A DNA stretch of 64,000 bases from Gracilaria domingensis (Eukaryota > Rhodophyta > Florideophyceae > Gracilariales > Gracilariaceae): NCBI GenBank assembly GCA_022539475.1, contig VCMS01000002.1:336672-400671 (forward strand), written 5' to 3'. This document shows, piece by piece, positions 41,871 through 64,000 of this stretch. The notes under the pieces are model-generated. The model was not told the origin of the DNA, ran no database searches, and saw only the letters and a list, made by a program, of their open reading frames with translations. Within the stretch, counting starts at the first letter, position 1, and every line of letters starts with the position of its first letter. The translations under genes and the position numbers were made by a program.

Positions 41871-41874
41871 TCAA

Positions 41875-43206
41875 GTCTGTCTCTTGCAGATGCTAGTTTT
41901 TGGCGGTGGTCGTCCAGAAAGTGGCAAGGGTTGTCCAGTAAATGTTTTGAAAAAATATCGAGATCAATTATTTCAAAATTTGAAGATAATTGCTTGGGTC
42001 GTCCAGAATCGCTGTGCAGTAAATACTGGTGGGGTTTCCACTCGTGCTAGTTCTTTAGTCGAGGGCTACCTGAACGGTATTTCGCGAAGTGTAGGTTCAG
42101 TTTCCATTAAGGTGCACGTTACACGATACCTTCTGCGGAATGATACCCTGCAACGCATGGAATACTGTTGCTAGTATAGATGATGTCCATTATGAAATCA
42201 TACCGTTTTATTCGTATCTATTCTTCTATCGACCGCTTTTGCTAACCACTACTTCGCCATATTACATGTACCATTTCCCCATGATGAAGCGGGTGTAGGC
42301 GCAATCTGCGGCAGATGCCGCAGAGGGCACCTGCACCAAATTGCGGTATCGGTAGAACGAATACGCACTCCGAGAGGATGAGGCGCGAAGCGCCTCATCC
42401 TCTCCGTTCCTCATGTAGGGAACCATGCCCAGATGCATGGTTCCCTACTTGAGGAACCTGCACCTGCAACTCGTGAGCTACGTCCGCATCAAAAGTCATT
42501 TACCTGTATACGCAAGCAGAAAGTATCCATAAGTTAGTCAATGATCCGTTGGATACATTTGAAATGCGATGGAACGTACAATTGATAAAGCAAAACAGAA
42601 ACGTTGCGCTAGAAAATTCTAGGGACCTAGTAACTCGCAAAAGGAAGAAGAAGAAGGCAAGGGATCCGTTAGATTACCAGCAATCCATTCATCATAAACC
42701 CCGAAAGGTCTCGAAGCGAGAACTCACAAGCAACGACACTGAGAATGTCCATGCAGCAAAAATACCACAAGATGCGATAAACGAGAGAGCAGCCTATGTC
42801 CCAACCAAACCAGAATCGTCTATTCTGAACACTCATAGATCCAAGATCGCCAAGAAACCAACTTGGTTTGTTGCGCAATAGGCTCTAGCTTCTCGCGTCT
42901 TGCGCTACTTTTGAAAAGTAGCGCAAGAGGCGAAGCTAGAGCCTATGGTGCAACGAAATGAACCATTGTTCGCGTACTTACAGTCGTCGCTTTGGGTTAC
43001 CGGGTTCCCGTTTTCACCCTTCAACTCGTTCTATATCTTGAACAAATAGAAGAAGTTGAAGGTGATTAGCTTATTTTCTGTCGTTTACATGTCGCAGAGC
43101 GCGAAGAAACGCGGTGAGGATTGGTTAGTTTAGAGCAAAGATACGTGGAAGGATATGGAAGAACGTACGAATAGACTGCACGGAATACATCCGTGAGATA
43201 CGGATG
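41875..43206. repeat. hairpin-rich direct repeat, copy 1
   Basis: About 1.33 kb that recurs in the same orientation at 62696-63998, roughly 90 percent identical by eye. It holds several perfect or near-perfect hairpins: 42306-42325 region (CTGCGGCA/TGCCGCAG), 42372-42404 (15-base arms, 3-base loop), 42411-42454 (13-base perfect core) and a longer imperfect one at about 42868-42953 that copy 2 lacks. A frame of about 100 residues is open in both copies, but changes between copies fall at amino-acid-altering sites as often as silent ones. Probably a non-autonomous element or an element end. Confidence 0.75.
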
Positions 43207-43207
43207 A

Positions 43208-43282
43208 CTCCGTCCTACTTTTTTCCGCCCTCTACTTTAAGGAGCCCCCATAAAGTAGAGGGAAGAAAAAAGAAGGACGGAG
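43208..43282. repeat. 32-base hairpin at the left edge of the cargo element
   Basis: An inverted repeat with arms 43208-43239 and 43251-43282, nearly perfect apart from one or two unpaired bases, begins directly where the 1.3 kb repeat ends. It may mark the left end of the transposon that follows. A matching sequence was not seen near 57.2 kb. Confidence 0.6.
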
Positions 43283-43558
43283 CGGAGTATAACGCGAGGA
43301 GGTGGATGGCACGGGTCACGACGGTAACGGTAGGTCGGACGTCGGAGGCGCGGCGGCGGCGGCGGAGGGAAGAGATCTATTTTTCTGTGCGAGATTGACA
43401 GGTGTACAGCGTACAACGTTGCGAAACCACAGGTTTATAACCAGTGGTAGATAATACGAGAAGTACACCCTTGTGTTTGTTGAGGTCGACGTGTACCTAC
43501 GTTCCTTTTTGAACGAAAGCACATGATTTAAACTCAAAATATATTTTCCGTTCTCAGC

Positions 43559-44056
43559 ATGACGTCGATCTTGACTGTCGCTCGACCTCCTTCTCCCTTC
43601 GGACGACCTTCCCTTGCAGTCTTTGTCGTCGTCTCTCGTTCATTTCTTCTTCCCATGGTCTACTACTGTACACATAAGAAGCGTGGGTGCCCTTTCGTTA
43701 CTCGCCGAGGAGTCTTATCTCTTCAACAGCATGTCAACCATTGCCCGTTTCGTTTGAAAGCAGCGCTGGAAGACGACAATAGGCGGCCCATTCGGAGAAG
43801 CAAGCGTCTCAAGCTTTCCGCGCCCGCGGCCGCATCTTTCGAAACGGTCACTGCCCCTTGTCGCCTTCCCGAGCCTCCGGTGTCCGAGGACATCGTTGAC
43901 CCCACTCCGTGCGCCCCTCCCATTCCGGACACTTCGCATTGTGGTTCTCCTTCCCGGGGTCCCGCGTCATTAGAGCGAGAACACGGAAGCAGTTCCCGCC
44001 CAGTGCCTTCTGAGGAGGCCCTCCGAGGGCCTCCTCAGAAGGCACCGAGTCGGTGA
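43559..44056 (+). CDS. transposase N-terminal zinc-finger frame
   Basis: A 165-residue frame from the ATG at 43559; the ATG at 43655 (MVYYCTHKK) is an equally good start. It opens with a C2H2-like finger (CPFVTRRGVLSLQQHVNHC) followed by a Pro/Ser-rich linker with a basic RRSKRLKL patch. Plavaka-type transposases of fungi begin in this way, with a finger and a disordered linker. A perfect inverted repeat with 20-base arms and a 3-base loop (44003-44045) lies in the last codons, 8 bases before the stop, and the transposase core frame starts right after, so the palindrome may be a later insertion that separated the two. Confidence 0.6.
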   Translation: MTSILTVARPPSPFGRPSLAVFVVVSRSFLLPMVYYCTHKKRGCPFVTRRGVLSLQQHVNHCPFRLKAALEDDNRRPIRRSKRLKLSAPAAASFETVTAPCRLPEPPVSEDIVDPTPCAPPIPDTSHCGSPSRGPASLEREHGSSSRPVPSEEALRGPPQKAPSR

Positions 44057-44063
44057 TTTGCAT

Positions 44064-46866
44064 ATGGATTATCTCACGGTTTGTCTGGCTTCAGTAGCTT
44101 CCAACCTTGGTCATCGTGAGGCGGACGAGCTAATTGGGCTACTTTGGGACCCGTTATTCTCGCAAAAGCGATTCAACGAGACCATAACAAGTTCCAAGCG
44201 CTATACAGAACTGAAGAAGGCCATTTTCGAACGATACGCCTCAAAGGACGGTTTCAATCGAAGAACTGTCTCGCCAGAAGGATATAAGTTCAGCGCCACC
44301 CTCTACACGAGAGACCCCGTTCAGAAACTTGTGAAACAGCTCCAGTTGGCTAACAACGAAAACACATTCTTCTACCCTATACCTCAGACCCACTCCACGA
44401 AAATATCTCACCCCGTGTCCGGCTCTCTCGCAAGAGACGCCACCTCAAAACTTAAGGAAATGGTCATGGGCTCTTTGGATAGTAGAATAGTGTGGTACTC
44501 CCAAGAAATAAGTTACAGTGAATCTTTCGTAGGTCTTCTGCAGGTATACAGCGATAAGTCTTCAACAACTCTAGAGCAAACATCGGTTACCGCCTATCCT
44601 CTTCACCTCATATTTTTCAACTTCTCCGACGAGCTACGCCGTAAGTGCATCCGTGATGACCTCACAGTAGTGGCATACTTCTCTACCACACTGATCGAGA
44701 TTTCCGCATCTGAAGCAGACACAATGCCATTCGTTTCCAGCAAGTCTCTACGCGAGTCCAGGATGCAAATCCTTCAAGAATCTCTTTGTCAAGTCCTGGA
44801 GCCCATTCTAAATCTCACGCAGAAAGGTTTTCAGTTCATCGGCGAAGACAAACTAAGTCGAGTGTGCCATCCTCTGCTTGCAAGTTATTGTGCGGATATT
44901 TTTCTGAGGCTTAGGACATTCTGTCCATTCTTCATGGGACCAAAACGGAAAGCCCGTGTCATAGATGCAAAGCCCCTCGCTCATCTTTATGCAGTTCTAT
45001 TCCTACCTCATTCAACGGACGTTCTCAAAAGCACACGAAAAGCATCCGAAACACATACACAGCTATCTTGCAACATGCACAAAAAGACGAGGCGGAAAGA
45101 CGTCCACGTCGTGCGAGGGAGAGGAGATCTCAAGCGGATACTCTGATGCGTTCAAATTCCATATCTCTCATTCCTTCGTTCCTCGAAACTTCCGTAAACC
45201 TTGGAATGATCCCGGGATTATCTCCATACAGTCTGTTCTCATTCGAACCATTACACAACTTGCATCTCGGCATCTCGAAGCTGATAAAACGGCCACAGTC
45301 GAGAGACTGCAGTCAGACACCCTGTGCACCACAATAGGAACATCTGCATCGCGTTCATTTCGAACGATACGCACCCACCTCCTCAACCATGCAAACGCAA
45401 TTCTAGATGCCATAGAACGCGATTCTCCTGCCAAAGGTTTACATATCGATTTCTCCACGCAGAATAAAGGCAAATCTTTGAATGTTATCTTCACAAAAGA
45501 AGGTCTCCGTGGAATGCTGGGGGCCAAAAACTACAAAGCACCTGACATGGTCCTCCCCTTCATAGGAGCATTCTTTGACATATGCTGTGGAGAACAGAAC
45601 GTTGCCTCAATCACAACCGTTTTCTCTCAGTACTCGGACTTGCTTTCGACCTCATTCAGATACAATCGTGACCCGTATTGGACGAAAAGCTCTCTCCTGT
45701 GTCTTAGTTCGGAGATTGAAGCCTTCAAGCGTTCCGCAACAAAGACTCTGGCGGATTTTCATCCCTCCAGACTGGGAACTTTGAAGTTTCATCTTCTCGA
45801 TCATCTCGTGGACGATATTCGCCGTCTGGGAAGTATCAAGTACTACGACGCAGGCATATACGAACATGCACACCTGCTATTTAAGAGACACTACAAAAAG
45901 ACGTCCAGAAGAACAGCAACGGCTGTGGAGGAGACTATTCGCTCCATTGAGCACGGACATGTTAGAAAGCAATGGAATGGCAATACTCCTTACCAGTGTA
46001 ATCCAGGTTTACCAGGAACTTCCACACAGCTTTCTCGATTTGAAATCAGAGGGCGGCGTTCTTTCACTTTACCAGCTCTTCAACATTGTGTTTCAAGTAT
46101 GTCCAGTTCAAAAACATGGACTGCTGTTAGAGAGATGTTCTCAAGTACGGACACAACGTCGATTCTTGACCAAATTGGTGAACAGGCCCTTCCTCCTTTC
46201 CTCAGTCTCGTGAAAGAAACACTGGATGATCACTCTATTGCATACTTCCCAGAAAAGACAAGGATAACTCTGGTGAATTCGGCCCTCATGAAAGGCGGCT
46301 TCGTTCCGACTCTTGAACACTTCGATTCGTCTTCTAAGGCACTTAAGCTGGGACGACCCAAATACCCCATCATCCAACGAGTCTTCGCTTCTCCAGCATT
46401 TGGTCCCAGTAGAAAGCCAAAGTTTTCCACTGTATTGGTAAGGGGAGAAGATTCAGAGACTTGGGTTGCCCAGGTAGTCGCTCTGATTCGAATATCTCTC
46501 CTTGATTCTGCACTTACCGCACCAGAGGTGGCATTCGTCCGGTATTTCGAGGTTTTACCCCCCGCAACAAACATCGACCACATATTGAAATGCATATCTT
46601 TACCGTGGGCTACAAACGATGAAAAGAACCACACTCTTCCGTTCCCTCGTCATTCCAAAGCGGAGACTATCGTAGAGTTAACTCCTTGGTACGGAATGGT
46701 TCCGGCTTCTGCACTACAGGGAACTGTCCATGTTGTTCGATCAAACTACCCTGCTCCACCTTTTTGTCCTCCACTTCAATGGTTTCAACACCGATTCTAC
46801 ATCAATCGATTCTATCATGATTCAGATGAAGGACCAACTGAGCACGTTGATCTTGTACAGCCTTAA
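44064..46866 (+). pseudogene. Plavaka/CACTA-like DDE transposase core
   Basis: Two overlapping frames: 44064-45146 and about 45100-46866. The first has LLQVYSDKSSTTLEQTSVTA (first Asp), YPLHLIFFNFSDELRRKC, VAYFSTTLIEI, and GEDKLSRVCHPLLASYCADI (second acid), in the order seen in Plavaka and other CACTA-superfamily transposases. The second frame has FHISHSFVPRNFRKPWNDPG, FTKEGLRGMLGA, KAPDMVLPFIGAFF, LKFHLLDHLVDDIRRLGSIK and YEHAHLLFKRHYKKTSRRT, where the family has its last Glu. The frame changes once near 45000-45130; a small intron is not excluded. Family naming rests on remembered motif order. Confidence 0.6.
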
Positions 46867-49173
46867 ACATTAAGGGCTCCATCCTCTACATGTTCACCTT
46901 GTGGTGCCTTTTCTTGTGATCCTGTGTTACTTCCGAAATCGTTCATGTCCATTTCCTTGAACTCCATATCCCCTTCCTCGCATTCACCAACGAAGCAATC
47001 GCTAATAGACCCCAATCTTCGGCTCACACTGTCAATAAAAAATTGTTCTTTCACAGTGAGGTAAAGTCTTCCGTTCGACAACATTCGGTATCCAAATGTA
47101 GCATCCCTCATGTCATTACCAAGAACCTTAGTCCAATCTTCCGTTGTCCTTCCAAAATTATGAAACTCGCTGGAATTGGTCCTCAAGACACGTTGCCTAG
47201 CATCCCCCAGAAAATTCTTTAAACACAGAGGTAGTAGTAGTCTTGTTTGACCGGGGCTCCGATAAATCGGGATCCCCGGCATGATATCCGGCATCGTTAA
47301 TGTAGCCCCCGATACAAGAAGGCGCCGGGACAATGTACATTTTGCTCTCCTTTCTATCCTGAGCCTGTCCTGGTTTGTTCCTCAGGTGCAGAAAGTCCGT
47401 ACCAGTCACAGTGACCATCATAGAAAACAGCTTGTACCGCACTGGAGTTGCTCCGAGACAGCCACTTCCATACGTTAAGTGTCTTTCCCTCCGGTTCGTC
47501 AGATCCGTGTATACCAAAGTTCCATAAAAATGACAGATAGTTTCCCCAGCCAATATCTTATGTTCCGTGAACACCCCCATACCAGCACGGGGATGTCGAA
47601 TCTTAGAAGATGCTACATGTAAGCGATAGCGATTGGCTTCAACAGTCAACAGCATATGCATATCCATTAGATTCAGAGCTCCTCGGTACTTCTCCTCCCA
47701 AAGATCTACAGTATGCTGTCCACACTTGTCGACAAAGTCCCAGTCCTTCCAGTATCTTCCTAGGGACTGAGTAATATGTGCAGGCATCACTTGGTACTGG
47801 GGGTAACCAAATGGAGCCTCCCATTCAAGCCTACCACGGTCCCGATGTGGAACCCGTTCATAAGTCCTTGAAGCCGCATCCACCACCTCCTGTTCAACCA
47901 GGATGTCATTCTTCCCCCCGCGAATAACTTCGGCCATAAGAGTCGTTATATGGTGCTTCGCATGGCTGAAACATGGCCTATTCTTCTCGCGCCCCAAGAA
48001 CTTCCTATGCTTTGTCAGCGAAAGGCACGCCATACCGGTAGAAAAAGTTCCCGCGAACATGTCCATGACAAGATCACCCGGTCTTTTGAAGCGACATATC
48101 GACTCATTCATCAACTCTCTGGACTTCTGCTCCGGTCTTATGTACTGCCCACTTGGTACTGAACTACCTGGCTCATGTACCTTCCATGTCAACCACTCCC
48201 CCGCTCTCGGTTTTGGCACCCGGTCAATTACATTCCTGTTAGCCGGGAAAGTAGAAGGAATGAAATTGTTCTCCTCAAATGGAGTAAGACTGGTTTCCTC
48301 CGATGGTCGCAATCCACGCTTCACCCCATGAACGGCGTACTCCGTTACGGGCTGTATCCCAAACTTTCGTGGATTCCCTCCAACATTACTTCGATCCCGG
48401 ATGAACACCAGTGGATTCCCATCCACTTTAAACGAAGGCATGAGTTCTGGTTTACCTTCGCTTCCAGCTTCATCTTTCGTACTCGCCGTTTCCGAAAGTA
48501 TCCTGTGCCAAACATGAAACTGTGCCATGGCACAGAATATAATGAAGTGCCCACCTGACCGAGGGGCGGAACTTATTAAGTCAGCCGTACGGATCATGTC
48601 ATCCTCACTGAAGACATCGTGAGCACTATTCCGTTTGTTCCTCTTCCTTCGAGTGTTAAAAGGAGGGTCTGTTAGGACAGGCTGTGCCTCACCCCATAAA
48701 ATCTCACTCTGATGCACAAACGTTTTGTGTGTCTGCCTCAGGTCCTTCATGTCACAGTTGTAGGCTACAAAGTGTGACTTTCTCATCCCCTTCCACACCT
48801 TGTCCATATTCATTCGAAGGAGACTGGATATCCCCTTCATTGGCGGCTCAATACCAGTCTTTTGGATGTTATAACCGGCAACCCGAGATTCATGCTCCGC
48901 AAGATTCACCGGCTTCTCGAAGTCGTCGCTATCGGAGCTCACGAGGTTCATATACACTCGACGAGGTGGGGGTGGGGCAAACTTGGTCGAAGAAGGTTCG
49001 GCATTACCGGAAGTTTTAGGGGTTTTCGTCAGTTCAAAATCAGGTTTCGCGTGAATGCCGACATGGAACCCTGCCGCATAACGCATATCCTGTATCGGTT
49101 TCCATGGCAACTCCGAAAACTTCCGAAATCGAGCAGGCAACTCACCGGAGTCAGAACCAGATACGGTATCCAT
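46863..49173 (-). pseudogene. DNA amino-methyltransferase (beta class) fused to SET domain
   Basis: It starts at the ATG 49173-49171 and is convergent with the transposase. Residues 165-410 are a bacterial-type N6-adenine/N4-cytosine DNA methyltransferase: motif IV PVLTDPPFN (DPPF 169-172), then HFIIFCAMAQFHVWH, motif X-like RPEQKSRELMNESI, and motif I LVMDMFAGTFSTGMA (371 onward). Motif IV before I marks the beta class. Residues about 521-650 form a SET domain: GMGVFTEHKILAGETICHFYG and IGGYINDAGYH. The main frame of 658 residues ends at 47197; a second frame (to 46863) carries on from the same place, so one frame change lies near 47200-47250. The pairing of a DNA and a histone-type methyltransferase is unusual. 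Confidence 0.75.
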
Positions 49174-49510
49174 CCGTATCTCCGAAAACTCGATCTAGTT
49201 CCTCATCTGATCAGCCCGTAAGCTATAGAGGCTATCGTGCGTGCATATTGTTTCGAGGTCTGTCAAAAAATTCCTTAGCCATTATTCGGAGGTTTGTATC
49301 GCATTCATCACTCAAAGTCTCCACCGATCCACTAGTACTGCTCTGTGGCACATCCTGTGTGAATCGAGTACTCTGGCTCCGCGGGGCATAACCAGACTCC
49401 CGTGTCTCTAGCGCTGTATACTTCAACGCCTGCATATTCATGTAAATGTATGATTTCACCATGTGCTGAACGTTCGTGTATCCAAGATGAGACGCAAAAC
49501 AACTCCATGC
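49174..49510. other. spacer in the cargo element
   Basis: About 340 bases between two minus-strand genes. It should hold the promoter of the methyltransferase-SET gene. Nothing else was recognised. Confidence 0.35.
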
Positions 49511-50155
49511 TCATACGACCTCACTGATAGCGAATCCCAGTCGATCACAGTTGTCTTTGGAGAACGACGTAAAAGTGGGTATGTACACAGATGGTGCATG
49601 GTTCACTTTTCGTTTCTTTTTCGGTTGTTTCTTCTTCATCATTCGGATGTTGTCGTTCTCTCCCATTATGTGGCCGAGGTATGATAAGTATATAATGACC
49701 TCAAATGGGTTCACAGCTGTTGGTGGGATGAACACTGTCGTCTTCGGAACCTGCTTTCTCCTGGTCATGAAATAGCCAACCAGGCATCGCACCGGTAGGT
49801 ACATACCCATATCCATAGAGAGAAGGAAAAAATCGCGGAGTCTCTGGTCCTCATCTCCGTCCTTCGTGTCAAGAAGCTTCGTTACAAGATATCGTTGTTC
49901 CACAGGTTTGTTATTTACAACACTCTTTCGCAGCTGTTGCAGTGTCAAGTTCTGCAGGTTCTTGGAGTTAGTGGCCTCCTCAAACATCTTCCTTGCCTCC
50001 GGAATATCCTTATAGTTCTCGGCGCAGAACTCTATTAGCCCTCAAAACCCCACGTCCCGTGGCCGATCAGGGCCTCCATCGCTGTTTGCCAAAGCATCGC
50101 GAAGAACCAAGAAAAGTCTGACATATGCATGGAACGCCGGAGGCGGAGCACTCAT
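49511..50155 (-). pseudogene. unrecognised small protein with SV40-type nuclear signal
   Basis: Reading from the ATG 50155-50153 gives about 214 codons with one in-frame TGA roughly 37 codons in. The downstream ATG at 49987 gives 158 residues. I recognise no fold. The C-terminal part has the basic string KKKQPKKKRKVNHA, which includes the classic nuclear signal PKKKRKV. The middle is helical and hydrophobic (LRDFFLLSMDMGMYLPVRCLVGYF). Its start faces the palindromic region, and it is divergent from the ParB-like gene, so the two may share a promoter. Confidence 0.4.
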
Positions 50156-50221
50156 GTCGATAGGATGTATCTCCTCTCCATCATCGGTGGAATCCATCGC
50201 TTCAGCGCAAACAACGGAGGC

Positions 50222-51073
50222 GAGCCTTTAAATGGCGACTTACGCTGGGCACCCCCGCTTTCGGCAGCTCCTCCCAGCGCACTGCCAGTCTCGTCCGTAT
50301 CCGTGTCCGCTCGGTGCGATAGCGTCGCGTGTCGGCCACGTCGCGATTCGGAGCTATTGCAAAGGTCGCGTATTGTGCTAAAAGTCGGGGATCAAGTGGG
50401 TGTGAAGCGCTAGTTTTCTCTAGTTTGATATATGTGCACGGCGTGTGCAGCGAAATCACTGCCGGAAGTGCCAGGAGGAGTGTTTTGGGAGGTATCCGGA
50501 GGGTCCCAGAATGTGGCCAGAACGTGCCCGCGGGCGGGGGGGGGGGGGTCGGTCGTGTTAGGGTAGGTACCCTAACACGACCGGACCCCTCCGCCCGCGG
50601 GCATAAAATCGCACATTTTTCAAAAAATCGCCCAAAACGTGCCCGCGGGCGGGGGGGGGGGTCCGGTCATGTTAGGGTACCTACCCTAAGACGACCGACC
50701 CCCAACGCCCGCGGGCACGTTCTGGCCACATTCCGGCGCCTTTCCGGGACCTCCCAAAACACGCCGCTTCGCAGTGATTTCGCTACACCCGGCCTCCGGT
50801 ACGTTGGCGCCGCTGTCCACGTGTATTGGCGGGAGTAGGCTGTACATGAAAGTGAATGAGTGTACTCTTGAGTACTATGCAAAGCATTTGAAGAGCATGA
50901 TTAGAGAGCGCGACCATTGCTCGCGTGAGTCATCATTGCGCGAACTCCACGACTCTAAAGCGTACAATCAGCGTGCGAGCGGCCACGGACAGGACACGGA
51001 CGAGACTGGCAGTGCGCTGGGAGGAGCTGCCGAAAGCGGGGGTGCCCAGCGTAAGTCGCCATTTAAAAGGCTC
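50222..51073. repeat. nested palindrome between divergent cargo genes
   Basis: Outer inverted arms of about 87 bases lie at 50222-50308 and 50987-51073 and face the two divergent genes. In the middle, 50445-50788 is a second inverted structure of about 344 bases with tips GCAGCGAAATCACTGC and its complement. Its core has two G runs (13 G at 50536-50548 and 11 G at 50651-50661), a perfect 15-base palindrome (50551-50582) and a related imperfect one near 50664-50696. The inner part looks like a GC-rich MITE inserted in a mirror-image promoter. Confidence 0.7.
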
Positions 51074-51225
51074 GCATCCGTTCTTGTATCGTCCAGAGCG
51101 AACGTATTGTTGATATACACCTTTCACTGCAATAGCTGTTCAACATGAAGCCAACTCGTGTTTGAAAGCGTACGCAAAGCGTGACTCCTCGCACTCGGCG
51201 GAGCACTCGATCATTGCAAGGTGGA

Positions 51226-53279
51226 ATGCAGGTTTCTCTGCAGATGGATATTGAGAATGAAGGAAAGGTGATAGTCGGGGAAGCGTTGTTGCATGGAATT
51301 GGAAGTGTTCTACGCCGCGAGTTGCACGGGAAGCAATTGGACCCAGGTCTTGTAGTGGTTCATAATATTCTCATCAGTCGAAACGGTCAGACGTTCTACC
51401 CTTACCGGGCGGAGGGCTTGGATCTTCCACAATACATCCAGGATCCCCGGACGGCCACTCCTTGGGATGAGAAAATGATGGAACCGGTGGCAGCCAGCAT
51501 TCCGGCGTCCAAGCAAGGAACGGTGAGCGCTATGAGTGAGGTGATGACGCCGACAAGCCGCACGGAGGCAATTCGAAGTTCATCAACACCGAGAGGTAGC
51601 GCATCAGTAGCACCTCCGCGGGCAGGTCCGTCGTCTGTTACGAAGCAGTCTATGGAGACGAGAGCATCCCCAGCTACGAAGCGGACAAGTCAAACAGAGT
51701 CTACCTCCGCTACGAAGCCCACTCCGTCGAAAAGAGCATCTCCTGCGATGAATCAGACCGTCGACACAAGGGGAACTTCTGCGTCGAAACAGACGGTTCA
51801 GCACGAGATGGCTGTGCAAGAAGAGGAAGATGAGATCATAAAAGGTCCCCTTCCAGACGCGGATGCGCAATCCGCACAAGGAGCTGGTCCATTTGTACCC
51901 AAACTGCACCAGAAACTGCGGAGCAGCAGGACGATGACGTTGTGCTTCTGTCCGCAATAATAACGCGTTCAAGTGTTTCTGGCGAGCGGTCTGGAACACA
52001 AGGGACACCTACTCGGAGTAAGAGGTACAGATGAATTCGTCAGAAGGTACCAAAGGTGAACCTCAATCACTACCGGATGGTTGTTGTTACTGTTGACATC
52101 ACTCTGGTGGACACTCCGCCCAATTTACTCCGTGGAGTAAGTAAACGCCACGTTGAAGCCCTTGTGAAGAGTATGGAGAAGCGGGGGATATTGCAGTCGA
52201 TGGGTTCTCCAGTGGTGGCCTTACAAGATGCTACTACGAGAGAGAGGGTTACTGACAAGGGACGCCTAACGAAGAAGTGCTTCATTGTAGATGGTTTGCA
52301 TCGTCTGAAAGCTATACAAATTTAGGCAGCGACTGGTGCACCGAAGTGGAAGCGATTAGCCAAGTTTTGGCGTTGCAATCTGCTGATACGAAGAGATGGG
52401 AGGCCCATTGGAATGAAGGAATTGTTATGTGTTGCTTCGTACCTCAATGAGTCGACGAGTACCATGCGAAGGATGATGTTTGCAGACAAGATACACTCTA
52501 TAGTTAGTGTGGTCGCCATTCTAATTGAAGATGTTGAGGGGGTGACGCCGGCAGACGTGTATCCTGCAGAAGTGACAGAAGTGTTGAAGGAGAGCCAACT
52601 GATTGGGACTGTGCAAGAGCGTCAGTATCTGAGATATGCCAATGTTGCCCTGCAACTCATGTCTCGTGAGGGAATGCTGGCCCATTTCGAGGATATATGT
52701 GAGAGTGTGAGTGACATAGGTCTCACACATCTGTCCCATACTCCGCTTTATGTTTTGGATGCCGAGGAGTTTCCCTTCATTCTTGATTGTCTTCAGATGT
52801 TTCTATTGAAGGGCAAGTCGACGAAGACAAAGCAATGGAAAAGCTTTGAGGAGGTTCGAGGTTTCTTTTATGATAGAGCAGTGTCTCTGTTCCGCGCGGC
52901 TCGAGCAGTGAGGAATGAACTGAACGAGGAACAGTCCATGGAAGTGTTCCTGAAACGCGAAGTCAGTCTTTCTGCTCCATCAAATGAAGATGACGTTGAA
53001 GACCCAGACAACAACGCAGCTGTGTATCAGTTCCTTTTGGGACAAGTTGTGAACTTCAACACATTGCTGCGTGTTCGGAGCAGGACGAACTCAATTAGAA
53101 CTGCCACGACTTCCGTTCAGAATCGATTGCGGACGATGCTCAACGTAATTTCGCCCCCCGCACCAGTGAAGCAGTCCGTGACGAAGAGGAGGACTCCCGT
53201 TGCTGCTGCTGCAACATCTGCCAGTGAAGAAGGGGAGCCGCGAAAAAAGTGCACGAGAACGGGCGCAGGTGGGTTATAG
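51226..53279 (+). pseudogene. ParB-like nuclease-fold protein with long disordered N-terminus
   Basis: The first ATG in frame is 51226. The first 245 residues begin with a short ordered part (IGSVLRRELHGKQLDPGLVV) and continue as Ser/Thr/Pro-rich linker to 51960. The ParB/sulfiredoxin fold follows in another frame: VSKRHVEALVKSMEKRGI, VVALQDATTRERV and FIVDGLHRLKAIQ (to 52322), where DGxHR is the family box. A helical region runs on to 53279 after a TAG at 52323-52325. So the gene carries at least one frame change, one further stop near 52032 and the TAG. In bacteria such domains bind or cut DNA and often pair with methyltransferases. The role here is unknown. Confidence 0.55.
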
Positions 53280-55062
53280 GGAAATTGAGCACGGCCGAAA
53301 TCGAGGTGCCAAAGAAGTTCTGGATAGCTCTGAAGAAGAACAGCGGGCTCCGCCGAGGAAGAAACGGAGAAAGACTTTCACAAAACAGATGAGATCTACT
53401 CTGAACAGCATGACACCGGATGACCTGATGTCTCAACTAAATGAACATGTGCTGAGAGGAAGGTCGATGAAGGTTCAGTTCGTGGCATTGGGAGAGGGAG
53501 CGAATGCAGAAAACGCAGGCAGTTCTGCATTTGTGGATGACGAAGAGCTTCTTTCTGTGACAGTTCCACGGGTTGTCACCGTCGAGAAAGAGGCTGCGCC
53601 AGACGACCAGCAAGAGACAGGTGGGGAGTCATTTGATGACGAGTTACCTACAGCTCTTCCGGAATCTGAGGAGCACGGACTTGTTCGAAGAGACCCATAT
53701 AATGGCCCACCGAACCCATCATGGTGCGGGTATGTCAGGCTGAGACCGCAGAAATGGCAAGGGAAGAACGTAATTGAGCACAAGGACCCCTGGCTCAGAG
53801 TCATTCACTTGCCGAAGGGACATAGGTCGGAGCTGCTAAGTGTCTCGAATCTCAGAGATGTACACCATCTTGTCTTTTGGCACGCTGCAAGGGCTGAACA
53901 TCGCCTACGGGCGGAGACATTTGGTATGCAGTATCCTCGTACTCGGCCGACAGGTATGGATGATGAGGAAGTGCTGTGGGTTGCTGCGAAGGAGCATGAA
54001 GAATTTGGGCAAATGTTCTTCGCCCGAATGCAAGCTGAGCTAAGGCAGAATGAATATTGCGTGCTTGATGGCTTTGCGACGGATAATGGTGTCCCTAAAT
54101 GGGAGGAGTTGGAAGAAGTTCAGGAGTTCAGAGATGTGTCGGGGAAGTTGGTGGACTTCTTCGAGAATGAGTATGGAGCGATGCCGGATATACGGAAAGG
54201 GGAGGAACAGAAGTCGTTTGTTCAAATAATCAACGATGATGAAGGATGGAAGGACGGTAGCGATTGACCATTTGAGGGGAGAGTGATGTCGACACGTTGG
54301 GGTACGGTGGAGAAGCCGGAGGATAATGAGGAGCTCAGGTGGGTTGTAAGGTGGCGTGCTTTACTTGATGTTCGAATGGGTACAATTGCTGCGGCTTTGG
54401 GACTATGGGACAATGAAAGGGAAGCTGTAAAGATGTACACTCCGAAAACTGGTGGTCGATTTCTGGGGACGACGAGAAAGTGCAAGCGCCAGACGCTGCA
54501 CACTGACTTCAGTGGTCTGGTTACGAAGGAAACAATGAATACAGGTAACCCTGGAGACTTTGTAATGGCCTCTGGGAAAGAGGGCTTTCCTCTCTGGGTG
54601 AGCGCTGGAAGCCATCAACTGGTGGGGATGAACAACCAACAGTTGCGAGTGATGTCGGAGGTGTATCCAGCGAAGAAGATAATCATCCCACCGTACTCTG
54701 TATTCGTGGGCCGTGGTGATGTGACACATGCTGGAGCAAGTGGGAAGGACAAGGTGGATAGGCCCGAGTCTATGGATTTGCTGGTTAGATACCACATGTA
54801 CATGGTACCAGAGGGCTACGCACTACCTGATGCTGTTCATCGGGTGCGGGATTTCCGACCCACGTTTGTCAATGGTGACGAGGAGGAGGAGACGGAGGAT
54901 GAACTGTTGTCCGATAAGGAGGGTGGGGCGGTTGACATGGAAGAAGACCAAGTGGTCGTGGAGATTGGTGTGGAAGCGGACGCCGGTAGAACCGAAGTGC
55001 TCGAGAGTAGTAGTGATGACGATTTGCCAATAATGAGGCTGCGAGCGCCTCGAAGTGGATGA
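53200..55062 (+). pseudogene. 2-oxoglutarate/Fe(II) dioxygenase, perhaps fused to ParB part
   Basis: The frame runs 53200-55062 with a TGA at 54265-54267. Its first ATG is 53389, but coding-like sequence with the basic block PPRKKRRKTF precedes it, so the protein probably began in the ParB-like gene. The dioxygenase core is downstream: RKCKRQTLHTDFSG supplies HxD, then GDFVMASGKEGFPLWVSAG, IIIPPYSVFVGRGDVTHAGA supplies the distal His, and LLVRYHMYM the Arg for 2OG. The C-tail is acidic (EEEETEDELLSDKEGG). TET/JBP-type DNA oxidases of fungal transposons belong to the same broad class, but I cannot place this one; protein or RNA substrates are also possible. Confidence 0.6.
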
Positions 55063-55326
55063 GAATGAGATGATTAGAAAATTATGAGTGTCTTGCGAGT
55101 ATTAAGAGTATTATACTATTACAAGGCTATACATATGAACATAGAAAAGGTGCGGCCGGCTGGTAATTGAACAAATGTCAAACGTCTTTGGTCCAGTTGC
55201 GTCTAATTGCAACATGCCAAATGCTCGGTATCGTTAACATCATTGGTGGCACCATTCACTTCGCAATTGAACATGTAGCGTCCTAACACTTCTGAAACTG
55301 CACTTAAGGTTGCTTTTAAGAGAAGT

Positions 55327-56238
55327 ATGAAACTGAGAAGTATATGCAGTTCCTGTCTATGCGGTATTTGTGGCAGTATGGTGACTATATCAGGAAAAAT
55401 GCCAGAGGAACAGAGAGACTTGGCGGAAATTTCACCCAATACCTTGTCTAAGTCCATATATGCCAATGGTTATGGTATATTAAGTTCCGTTGATGGAACG
55501 TTGAGAAGAGAAGGAGAGTCAATTCCTGAAGAAGTTGTGAAGTGTATGAAGTTCATTGACGAACGTGTTGGTTTCGGACTTGTCACAGGGGCTGATATGG
55601 GCGAGGTGGAGGGGAAAATGGAAGGACTCGGAGACTATAAGTTTGGTGTCTCGGCGAATCATGGAGCTTTCCTCCCTTTCTCTGACGAGAGGGAAATTAA
55701 GGCTGCATTCAATGATCACACCCTTGACCACAGTGTTGACGGACTACTGTTCCTGGAAAGGGATTTGAATGGGAGGCATGGTATTGTGAATGATGATGAG
55801 AAGGGGTTAGTGGAGACCAGAAGTGATAGTGGCCTTCCAAATTTCGTGTACAACAAACTGTGGCAGTCGAGAGAAGAAGTGGATTCTGCTATTGGGGACC
55901 TGTTGCAGAAGATGGATGCGTTTGTTATCTATCCCGGCGATAAAAGTTGCGAAATTGTGGACAAGCGATACACAAAAGGAAGCGGAGGAGAAAATCTTGT
56001 GGATAATGAACCGAGATTTATTGATACGGATGACGTCGTGACGTTCGGAAGTGCTTTGAGCGACAGACCTTTGCATGAGGTAGGCGTGTACGGCGTTCAC
56101 CTCAAAGAAGATTGTATCCCGGGTGGAGTACACAACCTGTTCGAAAGCGTGGAGGATGTACATTCGACAATTATGCTGGTGGCTCTGTTGTACGGCTACG
56201 AGGAAAAGCAGCACGATAAAAACCACCATGAATCATAA
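55327..56238 (+). CDS. HAD-superfamily protein lacking the nucleophile Asp
   Basis: A 303-residue protein from the ATG at 55327, intact. It is a paralog of the gene facing it at 56298-57158. Aligned blocks are YANGYGILSSVDGTLRREG, IPEEVVKCMKFIDERVGFG, SANHGAF, SDSGLPNFVYNKLW, and VTFGSALSDRPLHEVGVYGV. HAD enzymes need DxDGT; here the first Asp is Ser (SSVDGT), and the motif IV region reads GSALSD where the paralog has GNASND. It is therefore probably a pseudoenzyme, or a decaying copy. The overall layout resembles the type IIB group that includes trehalose- and sucrose-phosphate phosphatases. Confidence 0.6.
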   Translation: MKLRSICSSCLCGICGSMVTISGKMPEEQRDLAEISPNTLSKSIYANGYGILSSVDGTLRREGESIPEEVVKCMKFIDERVGFGLVTGADMGEVEGKMEGLGDYKFGVSANHGAFLPFSDEREIKAAFNDHTLDHSVDGLLFLERDLNGRHGIVNDDEKGLVETRSDSGLPNFVYNKLWQSREEVDSAIGDLLQKMDAFVIYPGDKSCEIVDKRYTKGSGGENLVDNEPRFIDTDDVVTFGSALSDRPLHEVGVYGVHLKEDCIPGGVHNLFESVEDVHSTIMLVALLYGYEEKQHDKNHHES

Positions 56239-56297
56239 AAGGGTATTGAGATATATACGACACTTTTATTACTGGGATCTCATATCCTAGCTAAGTA

Positions 56298-57158
56298 TTA
56301 CAGACATCGTAGCACTTCACAAATTCCAAGAGCATTTCTAAACCATTGACACTTGCATTTTCTGTACCCGTACAGTTCTGCCACCCTTCTGATGGTCTCA
56401 TGCACGTCCTCCACCCCATCAACAAGATATGTTACCGCTGCTGGATGGTCGTCTCCCTTCACATGAACTGCCAGGGTTGCTATTTCATATAGAGGGCCAT
56501 CATTGGAAGCATTCCCGAAAGCAACGATTAAATGTGTGTCGAACTGGGGGTCGTTTTCAACCAAGGCTAGCGCCCCACTATTTTTCGTGAAACGAATGTC
56601 CGCTATGTCACAGTTTTCATCTTGAGGGTACGCAACCAGGTTCGGAAAGGATGTCAACACTTTTGAAATACCGGAGTTAACTTCTGTTTTCCACTTCGAC
56701 AGTCCATTGTACGTGAAGTTAGGGAGTCCACTGTCTTTTCTAGTGCTCACTACTGCTTGTTGACGCTCTTCGTGAAGTCCGTGCGATTCATTTAAGGAGA
56801 GTGCAAGTCTTTCAAGTTCGGCTGCACATCTTTCGTAGCCTTCCCTGTCAAGGTCGTGATCAATTTCGGTACCATTGGATAATCTCACCCGTGCGCCTTG
56901 GTTTCCAGAGATGCCAAAAGTGTAGCCACCCAGGTGCTCCATGAAACTCTCGGCATCCTCTATATCTCGCCGAGTAGCAATTCCGACACCAACGCGTGCA
57001 TTGATGTACTTCATGCATTTGACTGTTTCGGCAGGAATATTCTCCCCAGCTCTTTTCAGAGTACCGTCAATATCACTAATCACGGCGTAGCCATTTTCGA
57101 ATATTTCGGTAGCCAGCTGCTCAGGAGTTACTTCTTGGGCTCTAACTTCTGAGTTATA
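56298..57158 (-). CDS. HAD-superfamily phosphatase, trehalose-phosphatase-like
   Basis: From the ATG 57158-57156 it has 286 residues. Motif I is AVISDIDGTLKRAG (DxDGT complete), followed by VGVGIATRRD, FGISGNQGARV, and motif IV LIVAFGNASNDGPLYEIA. Its layout fits type IIB HAD phosphatases that act on sugar phosphates. The frame stays open upstream of this ATG into sequence that belongs to the neighbouring retroelement, so the junction lies within a few tens of bases of the start. The stop is 60 bases from that of its plus-strand paralog. Either the gene is cargo of the transposon or it was caught at the junction. Confidence 0.6.
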   Translation of the reverse strand, partial: YNSEVRAQEVTPEQLATEIFENGYAVISDIDGTLKRAGENIPAETVKCMKYINARVGVGIATRRDIEDAESFMEHLGGYTFGISGNQGARVRLSNGTEIDHDLDREGYERCAAELERLALSLNESHGLHEERQQAVVSTRKDSGLPNFTYNGLSKWKTEVNSGISKVLTSFPNLVAYPQDENCDIADIRFTKNSGALALVENDPQFDTHLIVAFGNASNDGPLYEIATLAVHVKGDDHPAAVTYLVDGVEDVHETIRRVAELYGYRKCKCQWFRNALGICEVLRCL

Positions 57159-57219
57159 CATGTTTTGAAGGCTAGAGCGTATCTGCGTACAGAATGGATC
57201 GGACAACTGCTCTCTTATC

Positions 57220-57808
57220 ATCTCCTCAGGAGTAATAGGCACAAAGAACCCGACGGGGGTTCCGTGGATTCGGTAACGAATAAACCATCACACACGTCAC
57301 CATCTATCGTCTCGATCAAACCATCCTTGGTCATAACCATAAAACACGGTATCTCCAAGTCCTCCGTTGCGGATGTATAAGCGTTAGTCTCTAGACGAGA
57401 AAGGGCATCTGCTTGGCAGTTCAGAGAACCTTTCTTGTAGTGAACTTCGAAGTCCAATTCCGGTAAATGGAGACGCCAGCGCATTAACCTGCAAGAGGAT
57501 TCCGATATTCCGAAGAGCCAACGGAGAGCCGAATGGTCGGTATGCACCACGAAATGAGTACCCATTAAGTAGGATCGCAGTATGTTCAATGCCCAGACGA
57601 CGGCTAAACGTTCTTTCTCAGATACTGAGTAGTTCTTCTCATGAACATTCAGTGTCCTTGACCAATAGCCAATCGGTCTACGAGTTCCGTCTCCGAAGGT
57701 TTGGAACAAAGCGCAACCAACTTGGTAGGGACCAGCGTCTGTGTCAATCGAATATGGTAAATCAGGAGTTGGTAAGGCCAAAACTGGTGGTGACGTTACA
57801 GCGTCCAC
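57220..57808 (-). mobile_element. RNase H part of the Ty3/gypsy-like fossil
   Basis: Recognised by PYSIDTDAGPYQVGCALFQ, GYWSRTLNVHEKNYSVSEKE, VVHTDHSAL and LNCQADALSRL, the standard run of a Ty3-type RNase H domain. Confidence 0.8.
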
Positions 57809-57853
57809 AAGGGACTGAAATGCAGAAGCTTCCGCTTCCCTGAAGGGTTCCAG

Positions 57854-58741
57854 CTAAACTGGCCTGCCCTTCTTCAAAAGCTCGTTAAGGGGAGCCAAGA
57901 TCTCTGCAAAATTCGGAACGAATCCACGATACACGTTACAAAGTCCAAAAAAAGAACGGAGTTCCGTTTGATTCGTCGGATGCTTAGCTTCCTTCAAGGA
58001 CTTCACACGAACTTTGTCAATCGAAAGCTTTCCGGGACAGATCGTATGTCCAAGATACTGAACCGAATCGGTGAAAAAATCGCACTTCTTTGACTTTAGA
58101 GTTATTCCGGCATCGCGGAGAACACGCATGATTTCTCGCACATGAGACAAATGATCGTCCATGTTGCTGGAAAAGATGATGATGTGATCAAGGTATACCA
58201 AACAGGTCTTCCACTTGTATGGAGCCAGTAGAATACCCAATGCTCTTTGGAACGTAGCGGCCGCATTTGTGGGCCCAAAGTGCATTCGTTTGAAACGATA
58301 CAAGCCTTGATGGCACACGAAACCAGTTTTGTCACGGTCTTCCTTGCGGATAGGAACTTGCCAATATCCCCAGTTCGCGTCGAGGGCCGTGAAAACCTGA
58401 GCACTACCAAGTGAGTCAATGCATTCGTCCATTCGTGGAATGGGGTAGACGTCCTTAACTGTAACCGAATTGAGGCGACGGTAATCAATACAGGTTCGCC
58501 ACGATCCGTCCTTCATAGGAGCTAATACTACCGGTGATGCCCAGGGGGATTGTGCCGGTTCGATGACTCCAGCCTTAAGCATCTTCTCAACTTGAGCTTC
58601 TTCCTCTTCCCTAGCCTTAGGGCCAGCCCTGCAAGGGTGTTGCGCTATCGGCCGAGTGTTCGGAAGTAGATCAATTATGTGCTCGGTAATCGAGATCTTT
58701 CCTAGGGAACCATCCAACATCGGGGTAAACTCCCTCAACAT
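57854..58741 (-). mobile_element. reverse transcriptase part of the Ty3/gypsy-like fossil
   Basis: Recognised by GVIEPAQSPWASPVVLAPMK, RTCIDYRRLNSVTVKDVYP, ALDANWGYWQVPI, FKRMHFGPTNAAATFQRA and YLGHTICPGKLSIDK, a typical Ty3-type reverse transcriptase run. Confidence 0.85.
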
Positions 58742-59331
58742 ATCTCACGATGAGTGTCTGGTACATGTTCCAGATTCAATTCTTCCAATTCCTTAACAGG
58801 ATACTTCTGGTCTTGTGCAGGGGGACTAGCCTTTGCCTCAGACTCTAATGATGCGTTTGGCGTACCGACATCCGAAACGGTTGCGATCATCTCCTCTTTC
58901 CCCTTCTCAGGGTGTTGTACGCCGAGTACGTCCGCGAGGGTAACCTTTGTAGGTATTACAGAGGCCGGATGGGACATTACTGAACCAATAACCTATTGTT
59001 TGGTTAAACATTGAGGTTTAGGCCCCAAATTGGCTATCAAAAGCTTAAAAGGCTTCTGAGGTTCAATATGAACAACTCCATTATCGAGAGCAAGACGACG
59101 AGAATCATACAATGATTGTATCGGCTGCACGACACGTAAACCATGTTGGTCCGAGCTCACAGTGACCCAAGTTTGGAACTCCGCCGGAATCGAAATTGAA
59201 CGGGCGCACCGTAAACGAGTAGAACTTCTATCTATGTTTGGAACATCCTGTGCGGCAGGGAGAAGAACTTAACGCTTGAAAGCTTGCCGAATCGGCTTCC
59301 GAACAATCGGTATGGTTGAACCATCTTCCAT

Positions 59332-59877
59332 TTACACACATTTGGAACCCGGACGAATCGCTTCGACGAACCTGTGGCAAAGGTCGCAGCCCAGGATAAC
59401 GGGAGCTGCTAGTGATTCGCATACGAGAAATTCCAATTGGACTGTACATTGGCCGAGCTGAACCATCAGGTCAACGAAGCCTTCTGTCCGCAACAGATTG
59501 TTGTTTGCATCGGCAATATCCAGCGATGGAACTTGACGAATCAACGACCGAAACGAGGCAGGTAGCAACGATTTAACCAAAAGCTTAGGACCAGCTCCTG
59601 TATCTAGAACGGATAACTGTCGAACCATAAACTGGTTAGACAAGCCAAGGTCAGCGTAAAACTTGTAGTTACGCTTGGCTATGACCATAACCCCATCCGG
59701 GACACGGCGATTTCTATACCGCACCCACGGCCGACGCAGGACACCAAAGTGTCTCGAGTTCACGTCGGATTCCGCCGATTTCCTAGTAAGGATCTTGACT
59801 TGGAAGCGAGGCGATGAGGCCTCGGGCGCCACACTCCTCGACTCTGTGAGCGCCCCTTCGTTCAGGGAGACTCCCAA
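59332..59877 (-). mobile_element. aspartic-protease-like part of the fossil
   Basis: The block LSVLDTGAGPKLLVKSLLP resembles the DTGA active-site turn of retroelement proteases, and VILGCDLCHRF fits the later ILG strand. Confidence 0.65.
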
Positions 59878-62693: not shown

Positions 62694-62695
62694 AC

Positions 62696-63998
62696 GTCTG
62701 TCTCTTGCAGATGCTAGTTTTTGGCGAGGGTCGTCCAGAAATTGGCAAGGGTCGTCCAGTAAATTTTTTGAAAAAATATCGAGATCAATTATTTCAAAAT
62801 CTGCAGATAATTGCTTGGGTCGTCCAGAATCGCTGTGCAGTAAATACTGGTGGGTTTTCCACTCGTGCTAGTTCTTTAGTCGAGGGCTACCTGAACTGTA
62901 TTTCGCGAAGTCTAGGTTCAGTTTCCATTAAGGTGCACATTACACGATACCTTCTGCGGAATGATACCCTGCAACGCATGGAATACTAGTGCTAGTACAG
63001 ATGATGCCCATTATGAAATCATACCGTTTTATTCGTATCTATTCTTCTAGCGACCGCTTTTGCTAACCACTACTTCGCTATATTACATGTACCATTTCCC
63101 CATGATGGATCGGGTGTAGGCGCAATCTGCGGCAGATGCCGCAGAGGGCACCTGCACCAAATTGCGGTAACGGTAGAACACATACGCACTCCGAGAGGAT
63201 GAGGCGCGAAGCGCCTCATCCTCTCCGTTCGTCATGTAGGAAACCATGCCCAGATGCAGGGTTCCCTACTTGAGGAACCTGCACCTGCAACTCGTGAGCT
63301 ACGTACGCATCAAAAGTCATTTACCTGTATACGCAAGCGGAAAGTATCCATAAGTTAGTCAATGATCCGTTGGATACATTTGAAATGCGATGGAACGTAC
63401 AATTGATAAAGCAAAACAGAAAAGTTGCGCTAGAAAATTCGAGGGACCTAGTAACTCGCAAAATGAAAAAGAAGAAGGAAAGGGATCGGTTAGATTACCA
63501 GCCCACCATCATCGTAAAGCGCGAAAGGTGTCGAAGCGAGAACTCTCAACCAAGGACACCAAGAATGCCCATGCAGCAAACATACCTCAAGATGCGATAA
63601 ACGAAAGAGCAGCCTATGTCCCAACCAAGTACCAGAATCGCCTATCCCGAACAGCCAGAGATCGATCTTGAGAGACGAAATGAAATTGGTCGTTTTCCTG
63701 TATACGCAAGCAGAAAGTATCCATAAGTTAGTCAATGCTCCGTTGGATACAGTTGAAATGCGATACAACGTACCATTGATAAGAGCAAAACAGAAACGTT
63801 GCGCTAGAAAAGTCGAGGGACCTAGTAACTCGCAAAAGTAACCCAAAGTCTTTTTCCTGCCGTTTACATGTCGCAGAGCGCGAAGAGACGTGGTGAGGAT
63901 TGGTTAGTTTAGAACAAAGATACGTAGAAGGAAATGGAAGCACGTACGAAAAGACTGCACGGAAAGACTGCACGGAATACATCCGTGAGATACGGATG
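62696..63998. repeat. hairpin-rich direct repeat, copy 2
   Basis: Second copy of the repeat at 41875-43206, same orientation. Both begin GTCTGTCTCTTGCAGATGC and end ATACGGATG. It keeps the 15-base hairpin (about 63193-63225) but lacks the long hairpin of copy 1. Instead a block of about 145 bases (63319-63465) is repeated at 63693-63838. The window ends 2 bases after the copy ends, so what follows is unknown. Confidence 0.75.
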
Positions 63999-64000
63999 CT

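What the first reader, a model, noticed from the sequence alone, without database searches (positions are those of the whole stretch)
43207..57165. DNA transposon locus carrying a set of epigenetic-type enzymes
A Plavaka/CACTA-like transposase sits with a DNA amino-methyltransferase-SET fusion, a ParB-like protein, a 2OG/Fe(II) dioxygenase and HAD phosphatases in one block of about 14 kb. Fungal transposons with TET/JBP oxygenases are known; this mix of a DNA-mark writer, a histone-type writer and a possible eraser in an algal element is, to my knowledge, not standard. The element may mark its own chromatin to escape or exploit silencing. Shared mobility is inferred from proximity and the absence of host genes.
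Basis: partly seen in the sequence, partly recalled or inferred. Interest (0 to 1): 0.9.

Follow-up and report, generated by a model that had tools for sequence, protein, structure and literature searches.

The report
Giant Plavaka transposon with chromatin enzymes
A very abundant jumping gene of about 23 kilobases in a red seaweed carries, between its own ends, a fused enzyme predicted to methylate both DNA and histones, suggesting that the element writes its own chromatin marks.

Summary
The block is real and part of one mobile element. The window copy is a decayed member of a DNA-transposon family (about 23 kb when complete) in a 77.9 Mb genome, very probably Gracilaria domingensis. Ends are fixed to the base (CGTCTGT..ACAGACG): 555 left and 573 right ends with up to 2 mismatches, control 0. 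Nine of nine tested 10-kb copies (of 12 listed) have exact 2-bp target-site duplications, and 4 of 6 duplicated short copies sampled inside keep cargo pieces, so cargo moves with the transposon. The methyltransferase-SET gene is under purifying selection (dN/dS 0.38; 0.91 and 1.15 in shifted frames) and has relatives in Chondrus and Pyropia. Weak points: the dioxygenase is motif-level only, ParB support is weak, an 'eraser' is not supported, only 1 of 10 long copies tested outside a targeted scan has matching duplications, and linkage in other algae could not be tested. Most likely a Plavaka-type transposon that writes its own marks; activity and sign are inferred.

The parts
41874..42823 (+). 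Left end of the element; terminus AGTCTGTCTCTTGCAG (family: CGTCTGTCTCTTGCAG)
   Evidence: 10 left ends compared start at the same place, 9 with C as first base, this one with A; flanks all different
42824..43067 (.). Local rearrangement not seen in the sister copies compared; part is an inverted piece of the element (inversion read by eye)
43531..46866 (+). Plavaka transposase gene, frame-broken here; open over 1100-1101 aa in 5 of the 11 copies compared
   Evidence: Pfam PF18759, ORF survey; start projected from copy C108
46863..47238 (-). Remnant of ORF514 (514 aa in copy C108), function unknown
   Evidence: no family match
47239..50197 (-). DNA amino-methyltransferase-SET gene, SET C-terminus lost by a 2.6-kb deletion at 47238/47239; 1055-aa open frame in copy C164
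   Evidence: PF01555 3.6e-15, PF00856 1.4e-7 in copy C164; dN/dS 0.38
50227..50302 (-). Inverted arm just upstream of the methyltransferase-SET start
   Evidence: 99% complementary to 50992-51067; same orientation relative to both starts
50526..50716 (.). Two long palindromes (GCCCGCGGGC ... GTTAGGGTAssTACCCTAAC ... GCCCGCGGGC), the second with one change
   Evidence: 1154 exact inner palindromes in the genome, control 0
50992..51067 (+). Inverted arm upstream of the ParB-like/dioxygenase-like start
51145..55062 (+). ParB-like plus dioxygenase-like fusion gene, broken into several ORFs here; one 1240-aa open frame in copy C69
   Evidence: ParB-like PHROG 7e-4; HTD...H...R pattern shared with P0030, but the second H is K in copy C69
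55327..56238 (+). HAD-type phosphatase-like gene 1
   Evidence: PF08282 4.7e-5; only 0.085 in copy C69
56298..57173 (-). HAD-type gene 2, 5' part cut off by the truncation
   Evidence: HAD-IIB 4.2e-12 in copy C69; 45% identical to gene 1
62695..64000 (+). Left end of a second, 10.5-kb copy that runs out of the window (contig C2:399366-409872)

Best explanation
A cut-and-paste DNA transposon with a Plavaka-type transposase, about 23 kb when complete, with ends CGTCTGT..ACAGACG and 2-bp target-site duplications. Between its ends it carries an accessory module: a DNA amino-methyltransferase fused to a SET histone-type methyltransferase and, divergently, a ParB-like protein fused to a dioxygenase-like domain. 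Both genes start next to copies of the same 76-bp arm around an array of palindromes, so they are probably co-expressed. Inferred mechanism: the methyltransferase-SET protein writes an amino-methyl mark (6mA or 4mC) and a histone mark on the element's own DNA, with the ParB-like partner or the palindromes giving self-targeting; the marks keep the element expressible or recognisable as self. Shown: ends, duplications, cargo inside transposed units, the fusion, conserved motifs, selection on the methyltransferase-SET gene. Inferred: enzyme activity, which mark, self-targeting, anti-silencing outcome.
For: Fixed ends: 10 left and 6 right ends compared; 555 and 573 ends genome-wide with up to 2 mismatches, controls 0. 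2-bp duplications in 9 of 9 tested of the 12 listed 10.1-10.8 kb pairs, plus C158. Of 6 duplicated short copies sampled inside, 4 (C8, C60, C26, C16) hold cargo pieces. AT/AT ends: 27 ordered pairs against 3 in reversed order; 5 at 21.5-23.7 kb where about 1 is expected, and 4 of those 5 match both a methyltransferase-SET and a dioxygenase/HAD1-region probe. Cargo places sit at constant distances from element ends in 6 of 9 dioxygenase/HAD1 places. Methyltransferase-SET dN/dS 0.38 against 0.91 and 1.15 in shifted frames, 7 copies. DPPx in 26 of 26 rows, SET tyrosine motif in 22 of 26 by script plus P0024 by eye. One relative, P0026, has a ParB-like N-terminus on methyltransferase-SET; ParB-adenine methylase fusions occur in bacteria (PMC5512222, passage). 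6mA and H3K4me3 co-occur in permissive chromatin of several eukaryotes (PMC12695648, passages).
Against: Of ten copies of about 19 kb or more tested outside the AT/AT scan, 1 has matching 2-bp flanks, and that one (C6) is internally rearranged. Mis-assembly or recombination between near-identical copies could cause this but was not shown. Two of the six duplicated short copies sampled (C32, C65) gave interior sequence that matches no fetched copy. Selection on the ParB/dioxygenase-like gene (0.69 against 1.13 and 0.83) is weak, and on the HAD genes absent or unclear. No methylation, histone or expression data. The ParB-like and dioxygenase-like parts could not be modelled (pLDDT 35 and 37). 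C158, which has a duplication, lacks the module and the array.
Confidence: 0.55

Rival explanations
1. The module serves defence or competition rather than self-expression: the methyltransferase labels the element as self while the ParB-like part nicks unmarked DNA, a modification-restriction-like pair.
For: A ParB domain fused to an adenine methylase has nicking activity in Bacillus cereus (PMC5512222, passage); P0026 joins ParB-like and methyltransferase-SET parts.
Against: The ParB assignment is weak; no nuclease feature was tested; SET is not needed for such a pair.
Confidence: 0.15
2. The methyltransferase-SET protein silences: the element represses itself or its copies and so limits damage to the host.
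For: In bdelloid rotifers a bacterial-type amino-methyltransferase of the same Pfam family marks transposons for silencing (PMC8885841, abstract and passages).
Against: Nothing here tells activating from repressive marks; 555 left ends do not suggest tight self-control (my inference).
Confidence: 0.15
3. Host or passenger genes captured by chance and carried along without benefit to the element.
For: The HAD genes and the 396-aa ORF show no clear selection; the short copies sampled have lost much of the cargo coding sequence.
Against: The methyltransferase-SET gene is under purifying selection between copies, and a symmetric regulatory region joins it to its divergent partner.
Confidence: 0.13
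4. Chance pile-up of unrelated repeats.
For: The window copy is rearranged and truncated.
Against: Same order and orientation in sister copies, common ends, constant distances and duplications.
Confidence: 0.02

Closest known systems
TET+ Plavaka and other TET/JBP-carrying fungal DNA transposons (Iyer 2014, recalled and not held; Kojima 2025, PMC12730594, introduction and passages seen)
   Same: Plavaka-type transposase, 2-3 bp TSDs, an epigenetic enzyme carried inside the ends
   Different: Red alga; about 23 kb; DNA methyltransferase-SET writer; no TET/JBP match; ends CGTCTGT..ACAGACG instead of TGT..ACA or CATCA..TGATG
HarbingerS and MuDR transposons with SET genes in Phytophthora (mentioned in PMC12730594, introduction)
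   Same: DNA transposons carrying a SET gene
   Different: Other transposase families; that text mentions no fusion to a DNA methyltransferase
Plavaka giant repeats of Amoebidium (PMC11244446, passages)
   Same: Large repeats, up to 50 kb, with a Plavaka transposase
   Different: Cargo described there as tandem intron-poor genes, many of them tyrosine recombinases
N4CMT of bdelloid rotifers (PMC8885841, passages)
   Same: PF01555 amino-methyltransferase joined to a chromatin domain in a eukaryote
   Different: Host gene with a chromodomain reader, used against transposons
'Adenine specific DNA methyltransferase' of Chondrus crispus (P0006)
   Same: Same methyltransferase-SET architecture, 34% identity
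   Different: Genomic setting unknown here

Membership tests
Plavaka DNA transposons | Plavaka transposase domain | tested here: met
   PF18759 1e-18, score 68.1, cut-off 26.3
Plavaka DNA transposons | Terminal inverted repeats and 2-3 bp TSD | tested here: met
   7-bp perfect inverted ends; 2 bp in 9 of 9 short copies tested; mostly not in long copies
PlavakaA or PlavakaB (fungal subgroups) | Termini TGT..ACA or CATCA..TGATG | tested here: not met
   CGTCTGT..ACAGACG; subgroup definition from PMC12730594
CMCT group | C(2)C and H(3-4)H motifs in the transposase | not tested
   -
TET/JBP-carrying transposons | TET/JBP dioxygenase gene | tested here: not met
   No Pfam match up to E 10 for the domain or its relative P0030
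2OG/Fe(II) dioxygenase | Double-stranded beta-helix with HxD...H...R | tested here: inconclusive
   Pattern by eye only; fold model pLDDT 37; no meaningful PDB match
ParB superfamily | ParB N-terminal domain | tested here: inconclusive
   PHROG ParB-like 7e-4, 0.015, 0.076; no Pfam match
Beta-class DNA amino-methyltransferase | Catalytic DPPY/F before the SAM motif (permuted) | tested here: met
   PF01555; VLTDPPF precedes FAGTFST
SET methyltransferase | SET domain with catalytic tyrosine motif | tested here: met
   PF00856 1.4e-7; GEELYFDY, in copy C164; the window copy has lost this end
6mA or 4mC writer | Methylation of DNA | not testable with these tools
   -

The most novel reading that the evidence does not exclude
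A self-labelling transposon: the palindrome array is a parS-like cis site bound by the ParB-like partner, which brings the methyltransferase-SET enzyme so that one protein writes a DNA mark and a histone mark on every copy, including deletion derivatives that keep the array. In contigs C2-C9, 10 of 12 end-paired copies hold an exact palindrome, among them all 10 shorter than 21 kb; C158 is a counter-example, and shared descent of short copies could also explain it.
Probability: 0.22. Interest if true: 0.92.

Novelty: new variant of a known kind. Interest (0 to 1): 0.74.

Why it matters
Transposons that carry a possible mark eraser (TET/JBP) or a SET gene are known. A transposon carrying one polypeptide that joins a bacterial-type DNA methyltransferase to a histone-type methyltransferase, with more than 500 copies of each end in one genome, would be a natural system in which a selfish element couples DNA and histone marking. 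It would make it testable whether a mobile element writes permissive or repressive chromatin on itself. I found no report of it in the open-licence PMC library (ten searches); subscription papers, preprints not in PMC, and Repbase could not be searched.

Tried and rejected
Fold models of the dioxygenase-like and ParB-like parts had mean pLDDT 37 and 35, so no fold search was run. PDB profile searches gave only chance-level matches and the single-sequence search none. Relatives in viral contigs: none by the methyltransferase-SET profile or by P0030; in phages 4 records matched the methyltransferase part only. The 50227-51067 region was first taken for an inserted MITE; sister copies have it too, so it was counted as part of the element. 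A dehydrogenase resemblance of the 396-aa ORF rests on a GxGxxG pattern by eye; best such PDB match E 0.86; not claimed. Duplication tests on long copies mostly failed: C34, C29, C23 and C5, C157, C91, C137, C69 and C164; C6 (21.4 kb) matched but is rearranged. Of six long AT/AT pairs probed, C167 matched one of two probes and C295 one probe, which covers the HAD2 start and the sequence to its right. Interior samples of the duplicated short copies C32 and C65 match nothing else fetched, and the longest C65 ORF has no Pfam match. Contig-length matching of transposase and methyltransferase hits found no shared contig. Iyer 2014 is not held. ORF514 (0.69 against 0.48 and 1.77) and the 342-aa ORF (0.68 against 0.94 and 0.89) gave no clear selection signal.
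Full report
WHAT WAS CHECKED. The window is contig C2:336672-400671 of a 77.9 Mb, 680-contig genome.

THE ELEMENT. A 2-kb query from the finding was scored at 40 of 665 candidate places; 39 (one of them the window itself) match over nearly the whole query, the others at 94-96%, and the fortieth matches in part. Queries from the methyltransferase-SET and dioxygenase/HAD1 parts gave 40 of 40 scored matches (of 274 and 379 candidates), the window at 100% and the rest at 96-98%. Comparing ten fetched copies moved the borders outward. Ten left ends start at the same place, 9 with CGTCTGTCTCTTGCAG and the window copy with A for the first C; six right ends finish ..GCAGAACACAGACG, one with a change a little further in; a partial copy in front of C69 has no right end; flanks differ. 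The first seven bases of the two ends are inverted repeats. Genome-wide, with up to 2 mismatches, there are 555 left and 573 right ends and none for the reversed control. Pairing 92 left and 98 right exact ends on contigs up to C65 gives 48 pairs below 40 kb, with clusters near 10.3, 13.8 and 22.8 kb; a few pairs reuse a right end and are spurious. Their mean and median lengths (15.1 and 13.5 kb) times 564 ends would be 10-11% of the assembly, a rough figure.

MOBILITY. Exact 2-bp duplications flank 9 of 9 tested copies of 10.1-10.8 kb (AT, GT, TG, CC, AA, AT, CG, AC, CA; 12 such pairs are listed), where about one in sixteen is expected by chance. C158 adds a tenth. At 13.7-14.5 kb 3 of 5 tested have them (8 listed), and at 21.3-22.9 kb 1 of 5. 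Five more copies of about 19 kb or longer have none. So the long copies mostly fail. An independent scan asked for AT on both sides: 87 left and 100 right ends, 27 ordered pairs, 3 in the reversed order; 5 pairs lie at 21.5-23.7 kb against about 1 expected (Poisson P 0.004 under rough assumptions). Four of those five (C178, C301, C409, C155) match both a methyltransferase-SET and a dioxygenase/HAD1-region probe; C167 matches one. Interiors of six short duplicated copies were sampled. Four are deletion derivatives that keep cargo pieces: C8 and C60 share a junction inside the ParB-like gene joined to a HAD1 remnant, C26 has another junction and a methyltransferase-SET piece, and C16 keeps ParB-like and both HAD parts. 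Two, C32 and C65, show sequence that matches nothing else fetched. As a further check, of the listed cargo places on contigs C1-C65 other than the window, 5 of 7 methyltransferase-SET and 9 of 9 dioxygenase/HAD1 places have an exact element end on the proper side within 25 kb; 6 of the 9 lie 5546-5568 bases from the right end. Cargo therefore lies inside units inserted by transposition. Mis-assembly of 23-kb repeats would explain the failures in long copies but was not tested.

THE GENES. In sister copies the window's fragments become long open frames: transposase 1100 aa; ORF514; methyltransferase-SET 1055 aa; ParB-like plus dioxygenase-like 1240 aa; two related HAD genes; and, to the right of what the window keeps, a 396-aa and a 342-aa ORF without a convincing family match. 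The methyltransferase has the permuted order of bacterial beta-class enzymes, with PDB sequence hits to DpnA and CcrM (4e-8 to 2e-6). SET sequence hits are weak, best to KMT2A (E 0.13), which does not fix a histone site. Twenty-five relatives were found, 19 of them with both Pfam domains precomputed, including Chondrus crispus; the Pyropia yezoensis one has no recognisable SET. DPPx is in 26 of 26 rows and the SET tyrosine motif in 22 of 26 by script, with P0024 a 23rd by eye. One relative, P0026, carries a ParB-like N-terminus (PHROG 6e-5). A bacterial ParB-adenine methylase fusion with nicking activity is described in PMC5512222 (passage). The dioxygenase rests on a pattern read by eye; outside this genome only P0030 matches it.

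SELECTION. Against a single reference copy, methyltransferase-SET dN/dS is 0.38 in frame and 0.91 and 1.15 in shifted frames (7 copies). Transposase 0.63 (0.78, 1.33). ParB/dioxygenase-like 0.69 (1.13, 0.83). ORF514 0.69 (0.48, 1.77), HAD1 0.69 (0.62, 1.11), HAD2 0.58 (0.68, 0.47), the 396-aa ORF 0.92 (0.89, 0.73) and the 342-aa ORF 0.68 (0.94, 0.89) show no clear signal. Counts are pooled over copies and not independent.

REGULATORY REGION. The two fusion genes point away from each other. Each start is preceded by the same 76-bp arm in the same orientation, which looks like a duplicated promoter. Between the arms lie palindromes GTTAGGGTAssTACCCTAAC nested between GCCCGCGGGC palindromes, 2-6 per copy (up to 3 changes) in 7 of the 11 copies examined; of the other four, C158 has lost the region, C137 holds 6012 N within its fetched 20 kb, and C400 and C8 end before it. 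The inner palindrome occurs 1154 times exactly, control 0. Of the 18 clusters among the first 50 places listed, 10 are inside end-paired copies, 6 lie on the inner side of a single end within 16 kb, 1 is the window copy and 1 could not be placed. All 10 end-paired copies under 21 kb in C2-C9 hold an exact one; the two longer ones do not. Shared ancestry of deletion derivatives could also explain this.

MECHANISM. The simplest reading is a Plavaka-type transposon with a writer module. 6mA lies between H3K4me3 nucleosomes in several eukaryotes that carry AMT1, a methyltransferase of another family (PMC12695648, passages including part of the abstract), so a permissive self-mark is a reasonable first guess; in bdelloid rotifers an amino-methyltransferase of the same Pfam family works in silencing (PMC8885841, passages), so the opposite sign is open. 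Activity, target and sign are all inferred.

COMPARISON. PMC12730594 (introduction and passages) reports TET/JBP genes in Plavaka and ten other transposon lineages of fungi, and mentions SET genes in HarbingerS and MuDR elements of Phytophthora; its two Plavaka subgroups have other termini. The present element shares the transposase domain and the short duplications but has different ends and a different cargo. I therefore call it a new variant, not a new kind.

Noticed in passing
window 57218-59877 (-): Retroelement-like ORFs (reverse transcriptase and RNase H-like by eye) begin 45 bases after the truncated end of the element; the right 4 kb of the element is not found further on in the window.
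   Followed up: partly
C108, C157, C91, C137, C42 copies, left 6-7 kb: The left part of these copies is 99.4-99.7% identical to C108 while most of the rest is about 88-97%, with a sharp step; C69 changes at a different point. Gene conversion, recombination or assembly effects could explain it.
   Followed up: no
L097 (contig C65:185500-188500): The interior of a 13.2-kb copy with matching AT flanks holds 3 kb unrelated to any fetched copy, with a 489-aa ORF without Pfam match; two other AT/AT pairs have almost the same length (13213 and 13216), so this may be a subfamily with different contents.
   Followed up: partly
window 43208-43282: A 35-base imperfect hairpin (89% complementary, 5-base loop) upstream of the transposase; sister copies match it in reverse too.
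   Followed up: no
L028 (contig C69) 1-3955: The left end of one copy follows directly on the right part of another copy, head to tail.
   Followed up: no
copy C69, dioxygenase-like domain (P0002): The second histidine of the HxD...H pattern is lysine in this copy but histidine in the window, C157 and P0030.
   Followed up: partly
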